Source: Pseudofabraea citricarpa (taxonomy: Eukaryota > Ascomycota > Leotiomycetes > Helotiales > Dermateaceae). Taken from it: a DNA stretch of 64,000 nt. The stretch lies in contig JAPWGK010000004.1 in assembly GCA_029641185.1 (NCBI GenBank), positions 124,001-188,000 of the forward strand. The letters run 5' to 3'. Below are positions 3,001-62,133 of this stretch, one piece after another (positions within the stretch are counted from its first letter, which is position 1; each line of letters opens with the position of its first letter). A model generated the notes under the pieces. It was not told the origin of the DNA, did not search any database, and worked only from the letters and a program-made list of their open reading frames with translations. Position numbers and translations under genes: made by a program.

Positions 3001-3194
3001 CAACATAAGAGGTATCAATCCGTTCCATCCTTGAAGAAAACAATCGAACCGCCAAACCGCCAAACTGCCAAACTGCCAAACCACCACAATGCCTAACATC
3101 CATCCAGCCACCTACTCCTGCTAAAAATGAAATTCCCTCCCCAAAGAAGAGAAAAATAAAAAAAAAGTCCACCTTAATCATCCCCAAACCCTGC
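1..3194. other. No supportable gene; microsatellites
   Basis: I see no convincing gene here. Short open frames on the minus strand near 921..1130, 1187..1405 and 1564..1770 have protein-like composition (acidic and serine-rich stretches) but do not join through plausible splice sites and match no family I know. They could be remains of a gene or chance frames. A GGTA microsatellite lies at about 2201..2224, with a shorter GTAG run near 2356. An imperfect AACCGCCAAAC/AACTGCCAAAC array lies at about 3050..3090. The right end holds the 3' flank of the minus-strand regulator. Confidence 0.5.
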
Positions 3195-16213: not shown

Positions 16214-18247
16214 TTATCTGTATCTTCGCCCTCCTCTACCATCGTAAATAATCTCGCGTTCAATAATGCGCTCGTCGTCATATTTGTCAAATCGTGTACT
16301 CCTCCATGCTTCTTCTCGCTCGCGCTCATATTCAAATCGTTCTCGTTCCCGTCTTTCCATTCTCTCACGCTCTCGAGCAATCTCGGCAATACGGTGCTGT
16401 CGTTCACGCCGAATACGCTCGGAAAGTTGAACAAGTTGAAGTACATCCTCCTGTCTCTTGTTAGCATATTGGATTATTAGGCAACCGGGAAACTTACGTA
16501 TCGGAGATATTGGATCACATAATAGAAATACTCGGTCTCCTCAAAATCATAGCCCATTTCTTCAATGGCCTCGCGCACAACAAGATCTTTTGTGATTTCC
16601 GTCCAGAGATCCCCGATTCTGTTTCTTGGGCCTCGGGGCAATCCAACACGTCGATCGTTGGTGGTTGTTTCTTCAATCCTTTCGTACTCTCTCTCATATA
16701 CACCACCACCTCCTGGGGCTCTTTGGTTGTCAGATGTGCGAATAGAGATATCCATGCCTGTTGTCTCCTTATCTCTTCCGGAGGAAGAGTCTCTATCCGA
16801 TATGCGTTCCCTTATTGGTTCCCGCTCTCGCTCAGGAATGAACTTGGAACGACGTACACCATTGTAGCGCTGCCAGGTTATTTCCTCGGAACCCCCACCA
16901 ACACCATCCATACGTACACGCTCGGTTCCCGGAGGAACGTCTACAATGGACCAGTCTTTGGTGGCACCATTGTAGGCTTCACCAATATATGCTCTTTCCT
17001 GGTTCTTACGAGCATAGTATGCCGCTTCGTCATCGTTGTCCCGGAGGTCAATCTTGACTCTTTCCCTCTCCCTTTCCCTGCCCCAATCAGGGCGGGCATC
17101 TATGCTCTTCCTCCTCGACAAGGTAACTTGCGTATCCCGTACTTTGAGCTTGTCCCTTTCTGACTCATAGATATCCTGTTCATCAAAGAAATCTGGTCTG
17201 TGTCGTCGGGGAGGCTCGGGAGTGAGAGCACGAGGGCGAGTGGTTTTAGTTATATCTACCTCGGTATTGCCGCGTGACGTATATATGTCTATCTCGGTTT
17301 CCTTGCTCCGGCCAACGGCAGAACGAGGAGGTGGGGGTGGAGAGGGAACCTTTGGTCGCTCAAAACCTATATTAATGTTAGACAAAAGCCGCTGCAGACC
17401 AAAAATCGGTGTTCATACCATGATCAATGTGACGATGATGAGTGATAATTTCCTGGTGGATCGGTGGAGCTCGAACAATCTGTGGCGGAGGAGAGGGTGA
17501 GGGTGAGAGAGATGGTAGGGAAGGCTGTATTTCTTCCCGCTCCACAATTCTTGTACGTACACGTTCCATGGGCGGAGGAGAAGGAGTTCGCGGTCTCTGT
17601 CGCTCAATAATCCGCTCCCGGATATGGACGGGTGGTGATGGGGATCGTTCCCGTCTGATCTCTCTCGTCTCAATTACTCGTCTGCTCAAGCGATCTGGTG
17701 GTGGTGAAGGTGGTTCCCGTTCAACGACACGAGTTCTGAATCTCTCCTCACGGAACTGGGGTGGGGAAGGCGATCTCTCGATAATCCTCTCGCGAACGAC
17801 ACTGCGTACTGGCGATGGTTCTCGTCTGGTGATCTCTCTGGTTTCCACCACTCTTCGTACCGGCGAAGGTGATCGTTCTCTCCTGAATACTTCTCTTGAC
17901 TCTGTGACTCTCCTGACCTGAGACGGTGTTCGATCCCTCCTGTAAACCTCCCTGGACTCGGCAACTCGTCTCACGGGCGACAGAGATCGTGGTCTTCGCT
18001 CCAACGGTCTGTTAAATGTCTCCGTCTCTCGTTCCCGCAGAACCATGGGTCCGCTTGGTTCGGGTCTGGTGAAGTCATCGTTCAGGAAGGCTGGCCGGTT
18101 GTCTCGCTCACGACGAACGTAGGTATCCTCTTCATACTCTCGTTCTCTTGTACGGACAGGAGCCCGTACAGGTGGAGCTTCCTCTCGATAATAGGTATCA
18201 CGCTCCTCATACTCGGCCACGCGACGGGGTCCTCCGCGGACAGACAT
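16214..18247 (-). CDS. DUF8035-type protein with long Arg/Ser/Pro/Glu repeats
   Basis: Exons 17419..18247, 16498..17366 and 16214..16450 join to 644 residues. The N-terminal half is a charged, SR-like region built from imperfect repeats of the type RR-V-x-ETRE-x-RRERSPSPVR, ending in a proline-rich stretch. The middle part carries DWSIVDVPPGTERVRMDG and EEITWQRYNGVRRSKF. The C-terminal part (LWTEITKDLVVREAIEE, YDFEETEYFYYVIQYL) is the conserved domain I associate with DUF8035 proteins of Pezizomycotina. It ends in a basic/acidic coiled-coil tail (ERIRRERQHRIAEIARERER). The last exon must be read in a frame without its own ATG; the ATG-led frame at 16141..16467 is a shadow. Function is unknown. 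The RS-like composition suggests RNA- or chromatin-associated work, which is inference only. Confidence 0.85.
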
Positions 18248-49125: not shown

Positions 49126-49982
49126 AATGCCGTTTGTTGAATGCTACACAGCTAGTGTTTTCAGAAAGGTGTACTAGTCCGAGTGCTTCCAGATTTCGTT
49201 TTTTCAGAGACGGACGTCGCTTAACTTTTCTCGTCCGACGCTCGATTTACGCGATGGATGAGAGGACAACGTGATGCCTTCAGAGAAACTCAAAATCAAA
49301 CACAATTACGCAGATGTTTCAAACCAGCAGCTTAGTTATAAGTTTATGCTAACAAGGTAAATATCCGATTGGATCGAGTGACAGTAGAAAAGGCGAAAAA
49401 GGAAAGAAAAGCAAAAACATACAACAGTGGGTATTCGCTGGTGGTCACCCACCCAACTACTAATCTACCGATCTGAGGCTTATGTATGGCAGAGCGGACG
49501 GGATGCCCAGTTCTCCTCAGTCTATGGTCGTATGTGGAAGCTTTCGTTGTATCTTTATTTATATTCAAGTGATTATAGATGCTAGGAAGATGATCCTGCA
49601 ACCTTTTTGTTTTTGCTTTGGAGAGTACACTGGTTTGGAGTTTAAGAATCGAGCCTTTTCGCTCAGCTTTTATCTCTGATTATCTCTGATTATCTCGGAA
49701 TCTAAGAGCGGAATATCCTAAGACTTTGTTAGAAAGTAGATGGATTGCTCTTATATCCCATGTGCCAGCTACACGCTAATATCTTTACAAATATCTATAA
49801 AACTGTTCCTAGTTATAGGATTATGCTTATATAATACGATCGTGTTTGCTAACACACCTAAGTCACTCCCCCTTTAGACTTTGACTTTCTGCTATGAAGA
49901 GTTTACCTTTTATTGCCAGATACTGTGGGGATTAGAAATTATCACTTGATCAATGCTAGTTAGTAGCCTTAGACATCAACAC

Positions 49983-50125
49983 CCTAAGGAGTCTATCACG
50001 GCGAAACCCACTTAGAGAATACAACTTGCCACCTTCAGATCGATTTAGCCCCCACTCCCTTAAGGAGTCGATCACGGCGAAACCCACTTAGAGAATACAA
50101 CTTGCCACCTCCAGACCAATTCTGC
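49983..50125 (+). repeat. Two-copy tandem repeat, 76-bp period, beside the ABC transporter stop
   Basis: The block AAGGAGTC(T/G)ATCACGGCGA starting at 49986 recurs at 50062 and continues in both copies through AACCCACTTAGAGAATACAA and CTTGCCACCT with only a few substitutions. It lies about 100 bp from the 3' end of the ABC transporter gene, probably within or near its 3' UTR. Confidence 0.85.
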
Positions 50126-50220: not shown

Positions 50221-53200
50221 CTACTCTTCTCCATCATCTCCAACAACAGCACCAGTTTCTAATACCCTGTCAGGCTTCTCAAACATAGCTAGGCGTCCTC
50301 TCTCCAAAACGGCCAGTCTTTCACAGTGTGTTATAGTTCCAAGCCGATGTGCAATAGTGACAGTCGTATACCCATCAAATTCCTCTTGGATAATTCGCTG
50401 CATCAGGTTATCAGTCTCGTTGTCAACGTTGCTTGTTGCTTCGTCGAGAAACAAGATTTTCCCCGTCTCATCTTTTCTCACCATGGCGCCTGCCAAAGCC
50501 AATAATTGCTGTTCACCTTTCGATAGTGGCTGCGCGTTGAGGTCTGCATCTAAGCCCCCTCGATTTTGGATTGTCTCCCATAGGCAGACCTTTTTGAGTG
50601 CAGATATGATATCCGTGTCATTTACAGCGAGGTTGAGAGGATCAACGTTGAGTCTAACCGAGCCTGCTATGATGAGTGGATCTTGAGGAATGACGATGAA
50701 CCGGGATCGAAGTAAGTTTCGTGGAACAGTGCTAATATCGATGCCGTCGACGAATACTGAGCCCTCATTCATGTCTTGAAGGCGCAATAGCACGTATAAT
50801 AACGAACTTTTACCACTATGAAAAAGTTAGAGAATCGAAATTAAAGATCTAGCCCACCTGGTATTTTAAAACCCAAGGATCTAAAACTCAAAGCTTACCT
50901 TCCAGTACGCCCACAGATACCAACTTTTTCACCAGGGAGAATCGTCATGGAAATATTCTGCAAGGCATTGACGTCCCCACTATCAACAATCAGTACCTAG
51001 CATACGAATAAAAGGCTCAGAGAGCAGTGGCTACATACCCATAAGATGTTGTGAGGTCTCGAATTTCAATCAAGCCCTTATCTGGCCAGTTTGGAGGTGG
51101 TATCGAATCTTCTCCTGGTTTATCTTCTGGGGTGATGTCCTTTTCAAAAGTCTTGGTTCTTGCTATTGCACCCAACGAGGTTTCCAGAGACGTCCAACTA
51201 TTAATGAGATCCTGAAGACTCATGGTGAATGCCATAACACTTGTCAATGAAACACCAAGAGTGCCGGGACTGGTTGTACTGCGGAGTAGCATAGCAAGAG
51301 CCATGACGACGACTGCTATTGAAGCCGTCATAAAATCGAGCACGAGATTGAGCCACCTCTGAACGCAATAGAGAAGATAGTAGGGTTTTTGAGAATTGTC
51401 AAGATGATTCTCATTGATATCTCGGAAGTAGGATTGCCAACCGAATGCTCGGATAGTAGACAGCCCTTCCAAAGTCTCTACGAAGCTCGAGTATAAAGGA
51501 CTTTTGGCTTCTAAATCCAAGAACCTTAGCTGTCGTGATGTACGCAGATAAAACATCTGTATAAAGTATAGAACGATAACAGTTGGAATTATTACAATGG
51601 CGATATAGCTGGATCCAAGAGATATTAGTGCCAATTGGGCAAGGCATTGTATAGCAGCTACATAGACCTTTAGTCAGACCCTTGAGATCAAATATAGTTG
51701 ATAACTTACCTTTGAATGTTCCGAATGCCTCCGAGGGAAGAACGGCATCCACAAGTGTCATGTCCTGACTGAACCGATTAAGAGTGATTCCTGAATCGGT
51801 TTTTGCAAAGAAAGACATCGGAGCACGCATCACTGTTTGGAGTAGAATTTGATGTAGACGTGCCCCGGATTTTGGTACGATCTTAATCATGATTTGCCTA
51901 TTAGAATAGAATTAGTAGTGGCACGAACTTTATATATTCTCATGCTGAGAAGTCTTTTACCGTGATACATACCATATCATCATAGCCTGAGATACAGAGG
52001 CCGCTACCGCAAGCAAGACATAGACACCTATGAACCTCCCAGAGTTTCGACCCTGGTCATTGCTATACCACATGAGCCAGATCTCTAATTTCTGATTAGT
52101 ATCGAAATGAGCAACCTTCTCGATACTCCTGACTTACGAGGGAAGTTGACGGTGAATATATTAATCGAGATAATGGCTAAGGCTGCCATGCTATACCAGA
52201 ATCCAATCGATTTCAGATAGTACGAATAGACCGCGAAGTCACCCGCACGCCTTGTCAAGTCTGCAAACTGCTCCTCAGTTGGAGGTTTCACAAACTTGAT
52301 GGCAGCACGTGGTGTTTCTTCAGACGAAGTTCCACTTTCCTGGGCCTTGAAATTAGGTTGTGATAAGAGAGTATTGACGAATCCAGGGACTGTCTTTAAG
52401 ACATTGAATGGCCCTTCCTGGGCGGTATGACCTGAAGATAGGACGATGATGTGATCCGATATTGACAAGTGGCGAGCTTTTGTATTTCTATCAGCAGTGG
52501 TCCGAGATGGATATTGATTTCGTTTACCTGAGTGGGTGGCTATTATAATTGTAGGATTCCACCTACGAAGAAGCCCTTGCTTGCTAAACAACCTTGTAAC
52601 AAGAGTCTCTTCTGTTTGGATATCTAGAGCGCTCAATATGTCATCCAATAAAAGGATGTCACGTCTTGCATAGACGGCTCTAGCCAGGGCCTAATCCATT
52701 AACTCTGCATAACTATGATGAGTATTAAGTGATAAACTTACTATACGTTGTTTCTGTCCACCGCTCAATGTGAACCCTTGGCTTCCTACCACAGAGCTAT
52801 CGCCGTGAGGTAAATGCGCAATATCCTCCTCGAGAACACAACTGTAGATAACGCTTTGATACCAATTCATGTCAAATATAGACGCACCACAAACTGCATC
52901 ACGAATGCTGGTATTTGGTAACCATGAACTCTGACTGCAGTATGCCATGTGTGTAGAAGAAATCTGCATGGTGCCATTCTCACAAGGCAGTTCTCCTAAA
53001 ATTGCCTTAAGCAATGTCGACTTGCCGCAGCCAACCGAGCCAAGAACCATGGTCAGGGAGCCCTTGTGAGCATGCAGGTTGATATGGTGTAAGGTTATTT
53101 CTGATGTAGATGAAGCTCGAATGTCTACGTTCTCCATCAGTATGCATGTATCATTCGTTTTAGAATTCACAGCTTGTAGATCTTGAAGCTCAATGGCATC

Positions 53201-55300
53201 TCGTATAGCCTTGTCCGAATTTTTGTGGCTGAGTTTTCCACGTGGTATTTCACGGTCTATTTTGATGCGGTGATCTTCAAGTTGTGGAGAGTTGAGGAAT
53301 TTGGTAATTCTGTCAAAGCATCCAAAAGCCGATGCCACCACCGGGAGCGAAGAGAGCAGTGCCGTTGCTGGATTTGTAACAAGATATATAATAGAGAGTG
53401 ACGTGAACGCTTGGATAGTTGAAAGCGATTCGGACCCCCTCACTTCGGCTTGTATAGCAAAAGCAGCAAAGGTGATAAGAGGTGCTGATATTTGTGGCAG
53501 CGATGCTGAGAATGATTAGTTCATTGACGTTTTCTTTGACGAAAGCCAAGGATTGACTTACCGATTACGTTGAGCCATACAATCAGCCAGCGGAAACGCT
53601 TTCCTAATTGAAGTTCCCTGATCCTTTGACCCTGGAGTACTTCAGTCATTCGATCAACAAGGCCCATCAACTTTACGCTTCTCATTGATCTCAATGTTGT
53701 AGAAACCATCCCTATTCTACGCTGGATCGCCTGCACCCACTCCACTTGCGTTCCACCAATAAATGACGCAATCCAGAGCTCTATGGCAAAACAGACTAAA
53801 ACATAGTTAGTTAAGTGATAGAGGGTAATTGATAAATTTGGAGAAAGGAAAAGCAACTCATAAATATAAATCAAAGGGTTAGTTGAAGGGAACATACTAA
53901 GAACAATTATAATAGGTGCGACACAGACCCCACCAAGCTGTAGCTCAAGAAGCCAGATTCCAATGCCAATCTCAACAAGCCTGGCCCAAAGTTCATTGGC
54001 AAGTTCCAAACTACCTGCAATCCTATCTATGTCTGTGCTCATAAGAGTCACTGCAGCTGATTCATCATACTCGTCTGCGTACAACACAAGCGTCTTGCTG
54101 TAAATCATTTGAACGATCGATCCTCTGAACATGGTGATCATCCTAAACATTTGATGCTTGTAATGAACTGTAGATATCTAGGATACCAAATTAGCCCAAG
54201 TTCTATATTCTATGTTTGTGGCATATTAATTACCGCAATTCCAAGATATATGAGTCCTGTTGCTGCTATAAGGCCATATGCATAGTTCATTGTATCGATG
54301 TTGCTTGGTTGGCTAAGAAGCCTAAGAGCTCGGTTTATGAGAAATGGCTGAGCATAACTGAACCCAATAAGGCAGCATCTCGGGATGATAATTCTAAGCA
54401 AAGACCATCGTAAGCATATAATCGAAGCATATATGAGTCTATAGCGACTTTTTGTTTGGCCTAAAAGGTGTTAGTAATACATTTGAGTTTGAAGACGGGT
54501 TGTCATACACTTTTCCCAAGACGCGTGCATGCGCTCACCAAGCAACCTAGAGCTTAGGTCTTCGTCTAATGAAAACAGATCATCAAGTGCCAGGAGCTTC
54601 CAGAAACCTTTCATGAATAACGGGTCGAGCCACCAGAATGTTGTACGATTGAATATGCCGGCGGTTGATTCAGGAGAGGAGCCTTGATAAGCCAGTGTAA
54701 GGCACGAACGCTTATCTTTGGACTCAACAAGAAGAAGTAACACCTGGATTCCGATGCCAGTTGAGAGCACCGCGGCGATAGCAGGGTTTTCATGTCTAAT
54801 ATACAACGTACGCACTTGAGAAATACCGAACATAATCGATGAGAGTAGGTAAACGCTGAGCAGTGTTGAAGGTCGGAGGGATTTGCGATGCTCCATCCAT
54901 GAGAGTATCGCAACGCCCAAGGCGCCGATAAAGGATAGCACAGAACTTGGAATAGCGGTTCGGACACGTTTAAGGTCATCAGAAGACCACAAGATCAAAA
55001 TGCTCAATTGAAGAATGACAAAGAGAACTGTCAGCACCTGAGGAATGGTTAATTGGTAACTTGATCCCGCTGATGGCTGTGACATACGATTTTTGCTGTT
55101 CGAAATGCATTGGGTAGTGTCTTAATGTCGTATCTATATAATTTTGATATCCTGAAGGCAGAGAATATAAGCATCAAAGATGATGGCCCGATAGATAATA
55201 TGCTCTGCTCGAAAAGAAGCGTGAAGTCGAAGGGGTGCTGCCCACATTTGACAGCAGGCCCAAAGACGTTGTCAAAATCAATAGGACACTGGGCTGCCAT
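50221..55300 (-). CDS. ABCC (MRP-type) ABC transporter, full-length
   Basis: Thirteen exons: 55088..55300, 54509..55037, 54234..54460, 53898..54177, 53562..53795, 52742..53505, 52528..52690, 52138..52476, 51973..52084, 51710..51897, 51039..51657, 50899..50979, 50221..50815. All junctions are in phase, giving 1447 residues, the normal size for fungal multidrug-resistance-protein-type exporters. Order: N-terminal helical TMD0-like region, a linker with QGSSPESTAGIFNRTTFWWL, TMD1, NBD1 (Walker A GSVGCGKST, signature LSGGQKQRI, Walker B ILLLDDILSALD), TMD2 and NBD2 (Walker A GRTGSGKSS, Walker B ILFLDEATSNVD, H-loop IAHRLGTI). The NBD2 signature reads LSKGE instead of LSGGQ, and NBD1 has Asp after Walker B where Glu is catalytic; such asymmetry is common in ABCC proteins. 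It lies beside the RiPP precursor and is the likely exporter or self-protection pump. Confidence 0.93.
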
Positions 55301-56040
55301 AGCGAACCAAATGGATCATTCGAAAGGAATGAAGCAGCAAGTCACGAGAGATAGAAGGACTAAGCATGCAATTAAGGTTTTCAATGCGGCGGCGTGACAT
55401 GAAAGGAGGCTTTGATATTTTGATCTTGCGCTCGCCGACCGAGCGGGGAAGCACACTTATGGATGAAAGGTCACGTAGTATTAGCTTGCTCCTTACATTA
55501 CGACTCCAGCTTCTGCCTGGAAACAAGCGCTTTTTACAACGAATCAGAATTTGGGTTTTAATGTTGTGATACAACAATGCACAAACCATAATGTTGGATC
55601 TGGTAAAAGTAAAGTAAGTTCATATATTAAAGGTAATTGTGGCATGTATTAGCAACATGTTGATTTTTTTTACCGCTGCGGTGACTTCATTCGGCAAAAT
55701 TTAATCAAATAAGCTCCATGATTTACCTGAAATCTCCTTTCAGACCTTCGTCCCGACGTAGTGGTTGCGACTCCATATCACGTGGTCACATATCTTCAAG
55801 CAGATACCTTTGGAAGGTAAGACACAATTCATGACTCTATTGTTTCGGCCGTGAAAGAATGTCATAGAGTTCAGCTGTCTCGCATATAAGAATCCTCTTC
55901 CCTTATCCAAGTAAACAATAACCAGAAAGAAAAGAAAAGCAATATAGAAGGAAACAAAGTCATGTTCGCTCATCCTTCTCCAATCATCGCTTATCTTAGA
56001 AAGCTCGAAAAGCTCGAAAAGCTCCTGTCATCCACAAGCA
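55301..56040. other. Spacer between ABC transporter and RiPP precursor genes
   Basis: About 740 bp with no gene. It contains the transporter promoter and the precursor 3' flank; both genes are on the minus strand. A short AAAGCTCG direct repeat is at about 55999..56024. Confidence 0.5.
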
Positions 56041-56240
56041 TTACTTCTTCTCCTCCTCAATCTCGCTATCAGCTACAATGTAGCTATATAGGGCAGTGGA
56101 AGCTGAATCGCGCTTCTTTTGTTCCTCGACTTCGCTATCGGCAACAATGTAACTATACAGGGCGGTAGAAGCTTGCTCTCGCTTCTCTTCTACTTCGCTA
56201 TCAGCTACAATGTAGCTGTACAGGGCTGTGCTAGTTTGGT
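56041..56240 (-). repeat. Three in-frame core-peptide repeats
   Basis: Three direct DNA repeats of about 63-69 bp, each with a copy of the CTACATTGTAGCTGATAGCG-type block (forward strand CGCTATC(A/G)GC(T/A)ACAATGTA). The amino-acid block is fully conserved, while synonymous sites (for example GTA/GTT, GCT/GCC, TAC/TAT) and the linkers between the blocks differ. That indicates selection on the peptide core rather than a fresh duplication. Confidence 0.9.
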
Positions 56241-56395
56241 CGCGCGGTGAGAACTGTAAGGCTTGTCCACTGTTTTAGTAAACACGAAAATTTCCGACAA
56301 GAGGTCGCCTAAATACCTGGTACCGAGCTAATGGGTGCTGCCACAGCGAATGATGATGCAAGTGCCATAACTGTTGCTATCTTGCTAAGAATCAT
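56041..56395 (-). CDS. Dikaritin-type RiPP precursor: signal peptide plus three Kex2-separated core repeats
   Basis: Two exons encode a short secreted precursor. Exon 1 (56317..56395) gives a signal peptide (positively charged MILSK start, then a hydrophobic stretch ending SFAVAAP). Exon 2 (56041..56261) gives three near-identical repeats of 21-23 residues, for 99 residues in all. An alternative splice choice (56324..56395 with 56041..56253) gives 94. Every repeat contains the invariant block STALYSYIVADSE, then an acidic E(V/I)EE tail. Repeats 1/2 and 2/3 are joined by Lys-Arg dibasic sites. Repeat 1 is preceded by a single Arg, and repeat 3 ends in Lys-Lys at the stop. Signal peptide, Kex2-flanked repeats and a Tyr-containing core are the hallmarks of fungal UstA-like precursors (ustiloxin, phomopsin, asperipin, epichloecyclin types). 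Two UstYa proteins follow within 4 kb. The mature product is unknown. Confidence 0.85.
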
Positions 56396-57444
56396 CTTGA
56401 GATTTGTGAATTCTGTTGATAATAATTATCACATTCCCAAAAATGGCCTCAATATGAATGCTTACTGGCTTTGGAAATCTAGTTGACAGAGTCGTAGAGT
56501 ATCCTGGGGTGGTAAGCTAATAGAAGGTATTGAGTTTGAGTAAGGAAAAGGGGACTCTGAAATAATCAATGAGAAGTGCCCTTGAGTCTCCCTTCAAATT
56601 ATTGGATAAAAGGCTTGCTTTCCGCTTCCTTCGTCGATTTTTTCTTGGTCGAGAAAAAGCATACTCTGTATGTTTGTTGTGCCAGGTCCTTGCAGAATCC
56701 TCGCATGCATATGGTAGCTTGACACGACTCACCAGAAGGATAAATGTATTGTTGGATGAATGAAGCAGTAGTTTTCGATGATCCTCTTCCCGAGTTGAAT
56801 CAATCATACATAATCACAAAAGCACTCAGCATGAGATACGTAGAGATATACGTCAGGGTACAGGTGTAAGGAATCCTACCGTGACAATTCTTACTCAACT
56901 GCATAATCCAGGCCTCTTATCTTCGAGTAGCATGCACGTCTGTATAGCGGATGAAATAAACGACGGTTATTGATCTGTACTTGGTTCAATGGGGAGTTGT
57001 CGAGCTGCTGCTGCGGGGTCGACTCACGATGTGGCCCTCATTTTAAAACTTGCTTGACTGCAGATGCGAACAATTTAAATGCATGCAAGTGCAGCCAAAA
57101 TATATTTTCATGCATTGGAAAATGCTCGTGTGAATGATTTTGTGATGTTACCTGCATATAGACGTATCAAATCTCGGCTTCCTTATCTATCAGAATTCCA
57201 AGCGTTGGATCCAACAACGCAGAATCCAACAGCGTCGGAATACTACCATTTCTGTAAATGTATGCACCAACTCCACGAACACTATCGTATGAGGGGTAGT
57301 TTGGGTATCGAAATCTCAAGAATCGAGAGACTGAGAATTCGAGTGGTGCCAATGTCCACACGCTTTTATTTTCTACTTCTCTAGCACTCAATCCAGCTTC
57401 AAATTTTCGCAAATAATTTGCTGTCAAAATAATACAGAATTGAG
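56396..57444. promoter_or_regulatory. Divergent intergenic region, RiPP precursor / UstYa-like gene 1
   Basis: About 1.05 kb between the divergent starts of the precursor (-) and the first UstYa-like gene (+), and so probably the main control region of the cluster. The open frames inside (about 100 residues at 57079..57384) lack family signal. I found no clear repeated palindrome that I would call a regulator site. Confidence 0.45.
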
Positions 57445-58479
57445 ATGGGTCTCTTATCCTTCACTTTCAACTCATCCCGCTACAAAGATGCAAACGATCA
57501 GTTTGATGAAGCAGCTGAAAAATCGTTACGCACTTCAACGGACAACGAAGGCTACTATGACGAAGTTTCAGAAAACCAAGTCCAGAAAATCAAACATGGT
57601 CATCTAAAACTTTTAGTATGGCTAAACATTCTGGTATTTTGCCTACTTTCAGTCATGCTTGTGATTACGGGACATGTCTGGTTCAAACAGAAAAAGGTTG
57701 GGATAAACACTCTGGCGAGACAAGTCTCTGAGCATTGTATGAGCTTTCTAGAATTTTTGGTCTTTTATTCATTTTTTCAGTTCCTTGCTAATCTCCCAAA
57801 AGCACCAATATTCGATGATCTTGAGATCTCCTTATCATCTATGAAGATGAATGCCACATTACTCGAGTCCTACCCTCCATCAATCTACCGTCAGAAACCA
57901 AGTCATGAAGTTGATCTCGCATGGAAAAGACTGGCCAACATTCGACCTATCCCCCTGACGCGCGAAGATGTGATGAAGGTGGGCAAAGATCCAAAGCAGG
58001 CGGCCAAATGGCCCGAAAGCTTCGGATTTGGTCCCGACTCATACATCGGCCGAGTAGACGTGTTTCATCAGATTCATTGTCTCGATACTCTGAGAAGGGA
58101 GGCTAATTTTGACCATTACTATGGCAAGAAATGGCCACATGGCACTCCGACTTCAGAACTCCATCAAACACACGTCTCGCATTGCATCTATCTGCTTTTG
58201 CAAAATCTTATGTGCACTGCCAATGTCGATATCTATACTCACTTTTGGGCCGATGCGCAGTACAACGCTTTTCCAGATTTCAGTCTCAATCACAAATGTC
58301 GGGATTTTGAGGCTATCTTGAAGTGGCAAGAAGATAATTCTATCGACGTTAAGGACTTTGAGGTGATCAGACGTCCTGATGATTATCCTCCGCATGTTAT
58401 GACACATCATTTTAAGGAATTATTTGGCTGGTTCAATGATCATGAAGATGATGGCTCAGCAGGTGTTGAGATTGCGTAG
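57445..58479 (+). CDS. UstYa-like (DUF3328) oxidative cyclase 1
   Basis: I model exons 57445..57736 and 57803..58479 (322 residues). The 66-nt intron is in frame, so an unspliced 344-residue reading is also open, but removing it restores the family segment SEHSPIFDDLE. The plan is that of UstYa proteins: a cytosolic N-terminus, one membrane helix at about residues 54-76 (LLVWLNILVFCLLSVMLVITG), then a lumenal domain with both signature HxxHC motifs, HQIHC (about 186-190) and HVSHC (about 221-225), plus SIYRQKPSHEVDLAW. UstYa/UstYb proteins catalyse oxidative macrocyclisation of dikaritin precursors, probably through copper bound by these motifs. Its position next to the precursor supports action on that peptide. 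The C-terminal extension after the second motif is longer than in minimal family members. Confidence 0.9.
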   Translation: MGLLSFTFNSSRYKDANDQFDEAAEKSLRTSTDNEGYYDEVSENQVQKIKHGHLKLLVWLNILVFCLLSVMLVITGHVWFKQKKVGINTLARQVSEHCMSFLEFLVFYSFFQFLANLPKAPIFDDLEISLSSMKMNATLLESYPPSIYRQKPSHEVDLAWKRLANIRPIPLTREDVMKVGKDPKQAAKWPESFGFGPDSYIGRVDVFHQIHCLDTLRREANFDHYYGKKWPHGTPTSELHQTHVSHCIYLLLQNLMCTANVDIYTHFWADAQYNAFPDFSLNHKCRDFEAILKWQEDNSIDVKDFEVIRRPDDYPPHVMTHHFKELFGWFNDHEDDGSAGVEIA

Positions 58480-59150
58480 CAAGATGATTGTATGTAAGGT
58501 GATTGATTACTTGAGATTATCAGAATTATCAGAACGAGAATTGTCAGAACTAGAACACGGGAATTGAATCGAGAAACAATTCAATTGAATTCATTGTAGT
58601 CCATATCAAGTGTGACCCAACAATCGTGAGAGGTACATGTTGCCAATATTGAAACTCATTGTGCTTACTGCCTTGGACTTCTATTTCAGACTTGACTGGG
58701 GTAGCACCAAAAGTCCAACAACAATCCAAACTATGCACAAGTGAGGTCATTTTTCAGACAGAGATGCTACAGAAGTTCTCAGTCCCTTTTCAGTGCCTGT
58801 CATCACAAGTATGTTGTGGTCGGTTAAAATGTCGAATACCCTATCACATGAAAAGAATCGCCGATTCCCTTTTGCCACCAACAGTCATGTTTTGATTGAG
58901 TTGATATCTGTGTGTCCACATTATGCATGTAAATGCAAGCACATAAATATTCATGCGGAGGTCTCCCTATTTCGTTGCTCTTCGGTAAGGGAGTCAGATG
59001 GGGCTTGTCAGTGGTGATGCATGATAACATGGAGAAATGATGTGGGATCATATTCATCCAGCAAGTGCATACATACAGCTGCAACCATCTACATTTATTG
59101 GAACACCAAGCTGTTGCATTGCCTAATATCAACAATATGGCGCAATAGCT
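58480..59150. other. Spacer between the two UstYa-like genes
   Basis: About 670 bp, same-strand spacing between the UstYa-like genes. No gene is evident. It probably holds the promoter of the second. Confidence 0.5.
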
Positions 59151-60093
59151 ATGCTCTGGGGCAAAGAAAAGTCAGGTATCTCGATCATCCCCGAACATCC
59201 AGGTTTGAAAGCCTTCTTTCAATCGAAGAAGTCAATTCCTACCTTTACAGCACCTTGTAGCATGATGCCCTCTCGATTGAACTTTGTCATTCTTGCATCT
59301 TTATTCTCCATGATCTTCGTCGCCTCGTCCCTCTTGGTTCTTCTATACAGCAAGCAAAAACATCTCACTTCAGACGTGGCCAACGTTTTCCTACACCATA
59401 ATCAAGTTGTTTCTGTGTATCCATGGTCTCGTCCGGAATCCATCTTGCGAAAATTTCGTCCCATATCAGAACTAGAAGGTGTTCCAAGCTTGAACATGAA
59501 TACCAACTCCTCAGCCTCAGCGAATGATACATCAGTGGTTGATGACCATTGGGGCATGTTCTTACTTCCTCCAAACGGCGGATATATCACAGTAAAACAT
59601 GAAAATGGCGTACAGCAATACGGGGTCTCAATGTTTCATCAGTTACACTGCTTAATAATGCTTCAGAGGATGTTTTTCTCTGCCACATCGACATCATCCT
59701 CACAGGACCGGAATTTGCCACCAATGTCACATTATAACTCGGCCCCAGATGCAATGAAGCACCTTACTCACTGTTTTGATTATATTGCAGAGGTACGTGT
59801 GGTTTCTAGCTCAATTTCAATAGCTACACGATCAATTGACTGATTACAAGGCAATTATATGTGCGGCCGACGATACAATCGAGCCACCTCAAGTTATAAA
59901 AAGTAAGGGGAGTGAGGATAAGTTTGTAATAAACGGAATAGGGTCCTCGCACCACTGTCGAAATCCAGACCCGCTTTGGGAAGTTGTTGAGAAGTCGAAG
60001 AAGAATCCAGAACCCAAATGGAATTTCAAGGAAGGGGACACAGTCCACTCTGTATTTTCTCCTCGGCAGAGGAGAAACAATCAAAGACTGTGA
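59151..60093 (+). CDS. UstYa-like (DUF3328) oxidative cyclase 2
   Basis: Exons 59151..59792 and 59851..60093 (58-nt intron) give 294 residues. One membrane helix lies at about 44-67 (NFVILASLFSMIFVASSLLVLL), after an N-terminal cytosolic part that would be shortened to about 6 residues if the internal MMPSRLN start were used. The lumenal domain has HQLHC (163-167) and HLTHC (204-208). The segment after the intron (EAIICAADDTIEPP) is the typical continuation of the second motif (family: LLCAADTTLE). It is only distantly similar to the first UstYa-like protein, so the pair may carry out different cyclisation steps, as UstYa and UstYb do in the ustiloxin pathway. A GSSHHCRNPDPLWE segment near the C-terminus contains a further HHC. 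Confidence 0.88.
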
Positions 60094-60699
60094 TCTTCGA
60101 ATATTAGCTAGTTTCTGTATTGGCCGTGTGCCACAGAGAACGGTTGCGTGTATAGAGATAAATTCAGCCAACGGTCGAAAGTATGATAGTAAGGTTTCCG
60201 AGAAGAAATTGCGTCCACACACTACTACTGAATTATTTTTTATGGACAAGCATTCACGCATTTGAAATCTCAAATTGCCATGGTATCACCTCCCTGGGGG
60301 TTGACTAACTCTCCATGCCAGAATATGACCACATTAGCAGATAACCCAAAGGAACCTCGTCTATTGGAACGTGGTTCTGAATCCAATTGCAAATGGAAAA
60401 GCTGCAGTCTACAACTACTATTTGTGCAACATACAGAAAATTAGAGATATGTTTCCGATCTTGAAAATAACTTCCAGATTTCAGTGATAGTGGTACTCAG
60501 CCTGGGACCACTTTCGGACTCCATACGGTACATGAGTTTTCAAAGGAATGAATCTATTACCTCTAAATAGCTCTGAATATTTAACAAACGCCCTTCTTAT
60601 GATGTATACTGGGCAATATCTACATGCTTGGGTTTATCTGTGTACTGAATAAAAACGTAAAATGAGAAAACACGAGAGCAGTTTACGAAAGCCAGTCTC
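60094..60699. other. Convergent spacer
   Basis: About 600 bp between the convergent ends of UstYa-like gene 2 and the acyltransferase. No gene; a 60-residue frame at 60262..60444 has no support. Confidence 0.5.
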
Positions 60700-62133
60700 T
60701 TATCGTTTAGCCTGCCGATAAGTCCACTGTGCAAATCTAACGCTAGGTTCGTCAAATAACTTGGTAACAATTTCTGCCAGCCAAAGAGTAACCGGCAAAA
60801 GAATCAAATGTGGGACAAGAAAAGCAAATTCCAGCCCTAATGGACCCGCTTTCGATAGCGGATATATACCAGTCCAACCACTCAGCCCCGTGTTATTGAA
60901 ATCTCTCTGCCACCCAACAGCTGCATAAAGCCGATCACCAAGTATCCAGAGAACTGGTCCATGAATAAGGTATAGTCCAAATGATATGCGGCCAAGATAC
61001 TGATTGAAGCGGGTTTCGAAAAACCTTTTAAGCCAGTGTATGTGTTGTGTTGCCGCGACGAGGAAAGTTGAAGCCCAGAACAGATAGAACCATTTGCTGT
61101 CCTTGATAGCTAGAGGCTTAAAAAAAGACAAATAATGCCATCCAGGCGATGCTGCTAATGTTTCAACATCAGTTGTGCGGGACGGAACACCGCTAAGGTA
61201 GATGCTCGCTACAAAGAGCATATAAAAGAAAGGAGTCTTATACCGCTCAAGCTTAAAGCGCGAAAACACTTCAGGCAGATCGTTGTTCTGTGCAAGCAAA
61301 TCGAGTTCGCAAAGAAGCATGCCTGCAAGAAACATAGAACAAAACCAGCCATCTACCATGCATACAAAGTAGAGGATAAGTCCTACTTCAGCCCATAACC
61401 GAGCGTTTCGTGTAGATCTTGAAAATGCGAGGAGAGTTGTATAAACAGTGACAGAGCCTCTAAATTCGACGGGAATCGACCATAAGTGTACGTTATATTC
61501 AAGCCATGGTGGGTTGGTTGGCAGGGCTACTTTGAAGACGAAACTGAACCTCCAAAAATCTCGATACCAACTTGAAAGCTCTTCCAAATAGTTTGACTTA
61601 TGCTCTGGATACGAGGTCCAAATCCCGAAGAGATGCCATGAAGTCATGTACAGGAAAGTCGTGCCAATGATCGGGAGATGAAGTCGCAACCATCGCCTGA
61701 AAAGAGCCGAGGAGAGGTTATCTCCAAGCTTTGAAAATTCTCCGGCGTAAATCAAAGCCACAGGTTTAACCGAAAGCACATATCCGGAAAGAACAAAGAA
61801 GACCGTTACTGCAAAATGCCCGCCAGTAAAGAAAAGCCGTACGCCAGGTATGCACGCAAAGTAATATCGGTCTTGATACCCAAAAGCGTTTTCGAAGATA
61901 TCATTAGCTGGCCCTGATAGGCGTGCCCATCCTTGGTGATGTTGCCAGTATACGAGTAACGCTGCGAATCCTCTTAATCCATCAAGATATGCTGTCGGCG
62001 TGGCTTTCTTACTCGACCGCTGAGAGAAGAACGAAGGTTTCAGGAGATCTATGAACCATTTTGCTGCATGACTGGGCCTCCAAAGTTTTAATTCTGAGTC
62101 GGTCTTCAATAGACCTGTAACTGGGAGTGACAT
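60700..62133 (-). CDS. Acyltransferase-3 family membrane protein
   Basis: A single exon of 477 residues. The N-terminal TAYLDGLRGFAALLVYWQHH is the diagnostic start of the acyltransferase-3 (OafA/NodX-like) family, whose conserved histidine sits in the first helix. About ten hydrophobic helices follow, including FAVTVFFVLSGYVLSVKPV, HLWSIPVEFRGSV and a C-terminal YLGRISFGLYLIHGPVLW, all standard family signatures. These proteins move acyl groups across or within a membrane onto sugars, peptides or small molecules. Next to a RiPP cluster it could acylate the product, but the family is also common as a stand-alone gene in fungi, so cluster membership is inference. Intronless, unlike most neighbours. 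Confidence 0.88.
   Translation of the reverse strand: MSLPVTGLLKTDSELKLWRPSHAAKWFIDLLKPSFFSQRSSKKATPTAYLDGLRGFAALLVYWQHHQGWARLSGPANDIFENAFGYQDRYYFACIPGVRLFFTGGHFAVTVFFVLSGYVLSVKPVALIYAGEFSKLGDNLSSALFRRWLRLHLPIIGTTFLYMTSWHLFGIWTSYPEHKSNYLEELSSWYRDFWRFSFVFKVALPTNPPWLEYNVHLWSIPVEFRGSVTVYTTLLAFSRSTRNARLWAEVGLILYFVCMVDGWFCSMFLAGMLLCELDLLAQNNDLPEVFSRFKLERYKTPFFYMLFVASIYLSGVPSRTTDVETLAASPGWHYLSFFKPLAIKDSKWFYLFWASTFLVAATQHIHWLKRFFETRFNQYLGRISFGLYLIHGPVLWILGDRLYAAVGWQRDFNNTGLSGWTGIYPLSKAGPLGLEFAFLVPHLILLPVTLWLAEIVTKLFDEPSVRFAQWTYRQAKR

What the first reader, a model, noticed from the sequence alone, without database searches (positions are those of the whole stretch)
50221..62133. Apparently uncharacterised dikaritin-type RiPP gene cluster
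Seen directly: a secreted precursor with three Kex2-spaced repeats, two DUF3328 proteins with membrane anchors and both HxxHC motifs, a full-length ABCC transporter and an acyltransferase-3 protein, all within 12 kb. Known: in ustiloxin, asperipin and phomopsin pathways UstYa/UstYb-type proteins oxidatively cyclise Kex2-released core peptides. Inference: this locus makes a cyclic peptide with a Tyr-Ser-Tyr-Ile-bearing core, a core I do not recognise from the characterised families. No tyrosinase, P450 or methyltransferase typical of ustiloxin/phomopsin clusters is visible, so the pathway may be simpler.
Basis: partly seen in the sequence, partly recalled or inferred. Interest (0 to 1): 0.96.

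Follow-up and report, generated by a model that had tools for sequence, protein, structure and literature searches.

The report
Fungal repeat-peptide gene with crosslinking enzymes
A mould's DNA carries a small, apparently secreted protein that would be cut into three near-identical tyrosine-containing peptides, next to two genes for enzymes of the kind known to tie such peptides into rings, so it probably makes a not-yet-described member of a known class of fungal cyclic peptides.

Summary
On the minus strand at 56395..56041 lies a two-exon gene for a 99-aa, apparently secreted precursor with three copies of TALYSYIVADSE between Kex2 sites. All 7 variable DNA columns of the three cores are silent third positions. 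Beside it are two UstYa-family (DUF3328) genes, each with a hydrophobic anchor and two HxxHC motifs, an ABC transporter and an acyltransferase-3 gene. The only precursor relative found among 5.8 billion proteins is PVAG01_11153 of Phlyctema vagabunda; the best UstYa1 match is PVAG01_11154, the next locus tag. UstYa1 and UstYa2 relatives appear to share contigs in three Aspergillus species. No tyrosinase or S41 peptidase match lies on this contig. Best reading: a UstYa-dependent dikaritin-type RiPP locus with a core I found in no paper; ether crosslinks at Tyr-Ser-Tyr-Ile-Val are inferred. It is a new member of a known kind: 8 of 23 other UstYa regions fetched from this genome hold different repeat precursors, one phomopsin-like. 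UstYa2 was not found in Phlyctema, and membership of transporter and acyltransferase is unproven.

The parts
56041..56395 (-). RiPP precursor gene, two exons (56395..56317, 56261..56041), 99 aa, probable signal peptide plus three Kex2-spaced repeats
   Evidence: homologue PVAG01_11153 fits the same splice
56194..56229 (-). core repeat 1, TALYSYIVADSE (residues 38-49), followed by VEEKR
56131..56166 (-). core repeat 2, TALYSYIVADSE (residues 59-70), followed by VEEQKKR
56062..56097 (-). core repeat 3, TALYSYIVADSE (residues 82-93), followed by IEEEKK and stop
57445..58479 (+). UstYa1, UstYa/DUF3328 protein, 322 aa after leaving out intron 57737..57802; HQIHC and HVSHC
   Evidence: Pfam PF11807 189.9 bits; alignment; model
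59151..60093 (+). UstYa2, divergent UstYa/DUF3328 protein, 294 aa, intron 59793..59850; HQLHC and HLTHC
   Evidence: Pfam PF11807 71.6 bits; alignment; models
50221..55085 (-). ABC transporter, probably ABCC type, 1443 aa, nine modelled introns; candidate exporter, membership inferred
60700..62133 (-). acyltransferase-3 family membrane protein, 477 aa; candidate tailoring enzyme or unrelated neighbour
   Evidence: PF01757 103.2 bits
56396..57444 (.). shared divergent upstream region of precursor and UstYa1; holds a short block (57079..57093) resembling one upstream of UstYa2 (58923..58937); weak

Best explanation
This is a UstYa-dependent (dikaritin-type) ribosomal peptide locus. The 99-aa precursor enters the secretory pathway, Kex2 cuts after KR and KKR, and three peptides of about 19 to 20 residues are released, each with TALYSYIVADSE. 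UstYa1, with or without UstYa2, both membrane-anchored and probably binuclear copper enzymes, then oxidise the Tyr-Ser-Tyr-Ile-Val stretch. The likeliest bonds are ethers from a tyrosine oxygen to the beta-carbon two residues on (Tyr to Tyr, Tyr to Val), the i to i+2 spacing of Tyr-x-Ile in ustiloxin and phomopsin. Shown: the genes, motifs, splice sites, silent-only core variation, and neighbouring locus tags of the precursor and UstYa1 relatives in Phlyctema. Inferred: secretion, cleavage, copper use, crosslinking and its positions, export by the ABC transporter, any acylation.
For: Repeat precursor with dibasic spacing, found once in the window and 0 times in 40 shuffles. Core DNA varies at 7 columns, all silent; simulated chance of only silent changes 0.0001 to 0.003 per pair of repeats. 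TALYSYIV is kept in 5 of 5 repeats over both species while the whole proteins are 43% identical. Both UstYa proteins hold two HxxHC motifs, the binuclear copper site of CctR (PMC12435403, parts 1 and 2 of 3 read). In the UstYa1 lumenal model, mean pLDDT 71.4, each motif falls in a helix of its own; distances were not measured. The genome has a convertase P-domain match, as in Kex2. Published: 22% of repeat precursors have a DUF3328 gene nearby, and 65.6% of the repeats of that set contain Tyr against 38.2% of the rest (PMC7329392, passages).
Against: No expression or metabolite data. UstYa2 has no Phlyctema match among 13 hits, so it may be absent there or unannotated. The precursor search found no relative in the Aspergillus species that carry both UstYa relatives. 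UstYa-family proteins are also linked to hydroxylation, halogenation and isomerisation (PMC12435403), so ring closure is not certain. The core is not the Tyr-x-Ile-x of ustiloxin and phomopsin. The first repeat is preceded by a single Arg, not a dibasic site. The Phlyctema UstYa1 model is short (210 aa) and lacks the membrane helix as annotated.
Confidence: 0.85

Rival explanations
1. The repeat protein yields linear, unmodified secreted signalling peptides (pheromone-like), and the UstYa genes beside it act on something else.
For: By the published count 22% of repeat precursors have a DUF3328 gene nearby, so most do not (PMC7329392, passages). No product is shown here.
Against: Precursor and UstYa1 relatives have neighbouring locus tags in Phlyctema. 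With three exceptions, precursors annotated as mating factors or pheromones have no DUF3328 neighbour (PMC7329392 abstract). Two tyrosines are conserved in 5 of 5 repeats.
Confidence: 0.09
2. A narrower version of the best reading: the pathway is only precursor plus UstYa1; UstYa2, the ABC transporter and the acyltransferase are neighbours of another function. (Not exclusive of the best explanation.)
For: Only precursor and UstYa1 relatives are seen together in Phlyctema. UstYa2 is divergent (71.6 bits). The published asperipin-2a cluster has one UstYa homologue (PMC6514808, passages).
Against: UstYa1 and UstYa2 relatives appear to share contigs in A. coremiiformis (tags 165360 and 165358), A. 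ibericus and A. sclerotioniger (equal longest-contig lengths). A short upstream block is shared by precursor/UstYa1 and UstYa2, though weakly (13 of 300 shuffles as high, six pairs tested).
Confidence: 0.3
3. A chemical variant of the best reading: the UstYa enzymes hydroxylate or desaturate the peptide instead of closing a ring. (Not exclusive of the RiPP reading.)
For: CctR of the same family hydroxylates a cyclic peptide (PMC12435403).
Against: Family members beside tyrosine repeat precursors in the ustiloxin and asperipin pathways are needed for the cyclic products (PMC6514808, passages; PMC7329392, passages).
Confidence: 0.2

Closest known systems
Precursor and UstYa pair of Phlyctema vagabunda (PVAG01_11153, PVAG01_11154)
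   Same: Core TALYSYIV, signal-like start plus repeats, UstYa1 93% identical over 61% of the query, next locus tag
   Different: Two repeats instead of three; UstYa2 not found; both named only hypothetical protein
Asperipin-2a (aprA, aprY, aprT, aprR)
   Same: Small cluster with repeat precursor, UstYa family enzyme and transporter, no tyrosinase listed; several tyrosines in the core (PMC6514808, passages)
   Different: Core FYYTGY, one UstYa enzyme, an isoflavone reductase gene; here two UstYa genes and an acyltransferase
Ustiloxin B (UstA, UstYa, UstYb, UstQ)
   Same: Signal peptide, Kex2 repeats, two UstYa homologues (PMC6514808, passages)
   Different: Core YAIG between ED and KR, tyrosinase, methyltransferase, flavin enzymes and P450; no tyrosinase match on this contig
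Phomopsins (PhomA and five DUF3328 genes)
   Same: Repeat precursor with DUF3328 genes (PMC7329392, passages)
   Different: Core YVIP and tyrosinase, S41 peptidases in its relatives; such a set lies elsewhere in this genome, on contig C42

Membership tests
Dikaritin / UstYa-dependent RiPP (broad sense) | precursor with N-terminal signal peptide | tested here: met
   hydrophobic stretch from residue 9 followed by AAPIS; hydropathy only, no signal-peptide program
Dikaritin / UstYa-dependent RiPP (broad sense) | tandem core repeats separated by Kex2 sites | tested here: met
   three cores, KR and KKR between them
Dikaritin / UstYa-dependent RiPP (broad sense) | DUF3328 gene nearby with two HxxHC motifs | tested here: met
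   two genes, both with both motifs
Dikaritin / UstYa-dependent RiPP (broad sense) | crosslinked cyclic product | not testable with these tools
   needs mass spectrometry or NMR
Ustiloxin/phomopsin subfamily | EDYxI core | tested here: not met
   core is TALYSYIVADSE; motif from PMC6339444 passages
Ustiloxin/phomopsin subfamily | tyrosinase in the cluster | tested here: not met
   28 Tyrosinase matches in the genome, none on contig C34
Phomopsin-type dikaritin set | S41 peptidase in the cluster | tested here: not met
   4 matches in the genome, all weak (25.0 to 29.6 bits), none on C34; the asperipin cluster also lacks a peptidase gene (PMC12048977, passages)
Asperipin type | isoflavone-reductase-like gene and single UstYa | tested here: inconclusive
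   two UstYa genes; no reductase among the ORFs that I scanned by Pfam, but not every ORF was scanned and the family was not searched for
Binuclear copper DUF3328 enzymes (CctR) | two HxxHC motifs, each in a helix, behind one membrane helix | tested here: met
   motifs and hydrophobic stretch in both proteins; helices 85-100 and 118-138 hold the motifs in the UstYa1 model, distances not measured; no model for UstYa2
Binuclear copper DUF3328 enzymes (CctR) | copper binding and oxygen-dependent activity | not testable with these tools
   needs purified protein

The most novel reading that the evidence does not exclude
A tyrosinase-free dikaritin subclass in which two dedicated UstYa oxidases each close one ether ring on a shared Tyr-Ser-Tyr-Ile-Val core (Tyr to Tyr and Tyr to Val beta-carbons), giving a bicyclic peptide of unknown activity, with optional acylation by the neighbouring acyltransferase-3.
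Probability: 0.25. Interest if true: 0.6.

Novelty: new member of a known kind. Interest (0 to 1): 0.42.

Why it matters
It gives a compact, testable system (one precursor, two UstYa enzymes, no tyrosinase match on the contig) in which the part that each DUF3328 enzyme plays in crosslinking could be separated, and a core that I matched to no described compound. The pairing is kept in Phlyctema vagabunda, a fungus of apple bull's eye rot (PMC12613959, search listing), so the product is worth looking for there. The genome as a whole holds at least nine UstYa-linked repeat precursors with different cores (and the window); the published mean is 5.25 repeat precursors per Ascomycota strain, and over all fungi 22% of them have a DUF3328 gene nearby (PMC7329392 abstract). 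The criteria differ, so that comparison is rough.

Tried and rejected
Intron alternatives of the precursor: six GT-AG choices keep the repeats; 56316..56262 was chosen because it keeps the hydrophobic start intact and matches the spacing of the Phlyctema protein. A 44-nt intron in UstYa1 was tried and breaks the frame; the 66-nt intron fits the ten aligned homologues that span it. Paralogues of the precursor in the genome: none above noise (best E 1.05 outside the locus). Two weak Pfam hits of the precursor (ABC_toxin_N, RE_endonuc, both below cut-off) were rejected as chance. No solved structure matches UstYa1 at E up to 0.1. Shared promoter motif: ATGCATGYAARTGCA occurs twice in 44 Mb, both here, but it was written from those two sites; with 3 mismatches the window count is that of chance (8 against 6.3), and an unbiased local alignment gives 13 of 300 shuffles as high with six pairs tested, so it is only a lead. 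A literature search by peptide words matched ordinary words such as catalyst and says nothing; one search listed papers without Phlyctema. Horizontal transfer from Aspergillus: UstYa1 and Phlyctema sit beside, not inside, the Eurotiales group (bootstrap not settled), so it is not claimed. P450 absence near the locus is not proven: 92 of 297 candidates were scored. Methyltransferase and reductase families were not searched for.
Full report
What is there. The window is a stretch of contig C34 of a 44-Mb, 43-contig genome. The organism was not identified; the nearest named relative of precursor and UstYa1 is Phlyctema vagabunda, Helotiales. On the minus strand at 56395..56041 a two-exon gene encodes 99 residues: a hydrophobic start, then three repeats with the core TALYSYIVADSE at residues 38, 59 and 82, with KR and KKR after the first and second, and KK at the end. 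Divergent from it are UstYa1 (57445..58479) and, beyond that, UstYa2 (59151..60093), Pfam UstYa at 189.9 and 71.6 bits. Around them are an ABC transporter (55085..50221) and an acyltransferase-3 gene (62133..60700). The transporter model has 1443 aa with a TMD0 domain, two nucleotide-binding stretches and one membrane domain over the Pfam cut-off; the first membrane domain was only a sub-threshold match, and the name ABCC is from its layout and recall. Beyond 64 kb, L013 holds a RING protein and a response regulator, and L014, by eye in the frames, a kinase and a glycine dehydrogenase. To the left lie kelch and DUF6604 genes; four other left ORFs and one further window ORF of the ten scanned gave no Pfam match.

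Is it more than chance. A scan for repeats joined by dibasic sites finds the array once in the window and 0 times in 40 dinucleotide shuffles. A laxer scan finds one further window frame at 17989. Of the 36 core columns, 7 vary among the three repeats and all 7 are silent third positions; for each pair of repeats the simulated chance that as many random changes are all silent is 0.0006, 0.0028 and 0.0001. The three comparisons are not independent and gene conversion is not excluded, but the protein sequence of the core is what is being kept.

Gene models. The UstYa1 frame carries 22 residues that the ten aligned homologues spanning the site lack (the eleventh, P0002, starts after it); leaving out 57737..57802, a GT-AG intron with an internal CTAAT branch-like site, gives SEH-SPIFDD, close to them. 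UstYa2 needs intron 59793..59850, after which AIICAADDTIEPP matches most homologues. Both proteins have two HxxHC motifs and one strong hydrophobic stretch.

Relatives. The precursor search returned 1 protein at E up to 10 from 423 candidates: PVAG01_11153 of Phlyctema vagabunda, E 5.9e-13, with two repeats of nearly the same core. The UstYa1 search returned 113 proteins. The best is PVAG01_11154, 93% identical over 61% of the query; its longest contig has the precursor's contig length (1,408,082), so the two are taken as neighbours. The UstYa2 search returned 13: 11 from Aspergillus, 1 from Conoideocrella, 1 unnamed, none from Phlyctema. In three species the longest contig of the UstYa1 and UstYa2 relatives has the same length: A. 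coremiiformis (81,619; tags 165360 and 165358), A. ibericus (428,798) and A. sclerotioniger (1,103,785). That these are the same contigs is inferred from length and tags. In a tree of the window and 54 of the 113 hits, window and Phlyctema group at 100/99 and lie with two unnamed proteins beside a Eurotiales group, all within one set at 98/89; the bootstrap had not settled.

How it most likely works. Published: Kex2 releases repeats in the secretory path, and DUF3328 proteins are needed for ring closure in ustiloxin and asperipin (PMC6514808 passages; PMC7329392 passages). CctR shows binuclear copper at the double HxxHC motif (PMC12435403, parts 1 and 2 of 3 read). In the UstYa1 lumenal model (23 sequences, mean pLDDT 71.4, pTM 0.67) motif 1 lies in helix 85-100 and motif 2 in helix 118-138; this fits, but distances were not measured and no UstYa2 model could be run. 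In ustiloxin and phomopsin Tyr joins an Ile two residues on; here Tyr-Ser-Tyr and Tyr-Ile-Val give two such spacings in one core. That is inference. Final trimming proteases, export and acylation are inferred too. Other chemistry of the family (hydroxylation, halogenation, isomerisation) is not excluded.

Membership. The broad features of a UstYa-dependent RiPP are met; the product is not testable here. It is not of the ustiloxin/phomopsin subfamily: the EDYxI core is absent (motif from PMC6339444 passages), no Tyrosinase match lies on C34 among 28 in the genome and no S41 match among 4, all weak. The same genome does have that set on C42: a precursor stretch with 14 repeats of EDYVIPID or EDYVIPFD near 1,064,784, UstYa matches at 1,063,129, 1,072,684 and 1,076,831, tyrosinase at 1,074,557 and S41 peptidase at 1,060,570. 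This serves as an internal positive control for the absence at the window locus. P450 matches: none in the window, but 92 of 297 candidates were scored. Methyltransferases were not searched for.

Context and novelty. I fetched 23 ten-kilobase regions around UstYa matches other than the window's. Eight hold a clear repeat precursor (L017, L019, L022, L025, L028, L029, L032, L034), three a doubtful one (L015, L016, L035) and twelve none; clear and doubtful were judged by eye. So the finding is one of at least nine such loci in this genome, each with its own core. The paper searches that could bear on it listed nothing that I recognised as this core; (Helotiales, RiPP, precursor peptide) returned 0 papers, and one search lists a 2025 genome announcement for Phlyctema vagabunda (listing only, PMC12613959). 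Passages were also seen of PMC9632046 (nine dikaritin clusters in Venturia inaequalis) and PMC9233826. Genomes with about nine such loci are thus already on record. The supplementary tables of the two large surveys were not available, so the core may be listed there.

Verdict. It is a new member of a known kind; interest 0.42.

Noticed in passing
L022 (G000:C42:1058500-1068499), precursor near C42:1064784, minus strand: A repeat precursor stretch with 14 copies of EDYVIPID or EDYVIPFD, the YVIP core published for phomopsins, with UstYa, tyrosinase and S41 peptidase matches within about 12 kb. If the organism grows on food plants this deserves a look by mycotoxin specialists.
   Followed up: partly
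L017, L019, L025, L028, L029, L032, L034 (own genome, near UstYa matches): Seven further repeat precursors with different cores, among them AYQYTDTPF, GYDQRALYVDDDE, GIQGLHNYVTLKVKG, LGDYGTFY, EFPFPTYAGVE and DWIYPPPDRK.
   Followed up: partly
L015 (G000:C10:941000-950999), about position 3120, minus strand: A glycine/alanine-rich frame with two copies beginning HHKGAGGG beside a strong UstYa match; it recalls the di-histidine repeat precursors mentioned in PMC7329392. Doubtful.
   Followed up: no
57079..57115 and 58923..58955: A roughly 40-base block with ATGCATG and TTCATGC is similar upstream of precursor/UstYa1 and of UstYa2; weak statistics.
   Followed up: partly
window 49980..50120: A stretch of about 55 bases (aaggagtc...tacaacttgccacct) occurs twice in close succession just beyond the transporter's 3' end; seen by eye, not analysed.
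   Followed up: no
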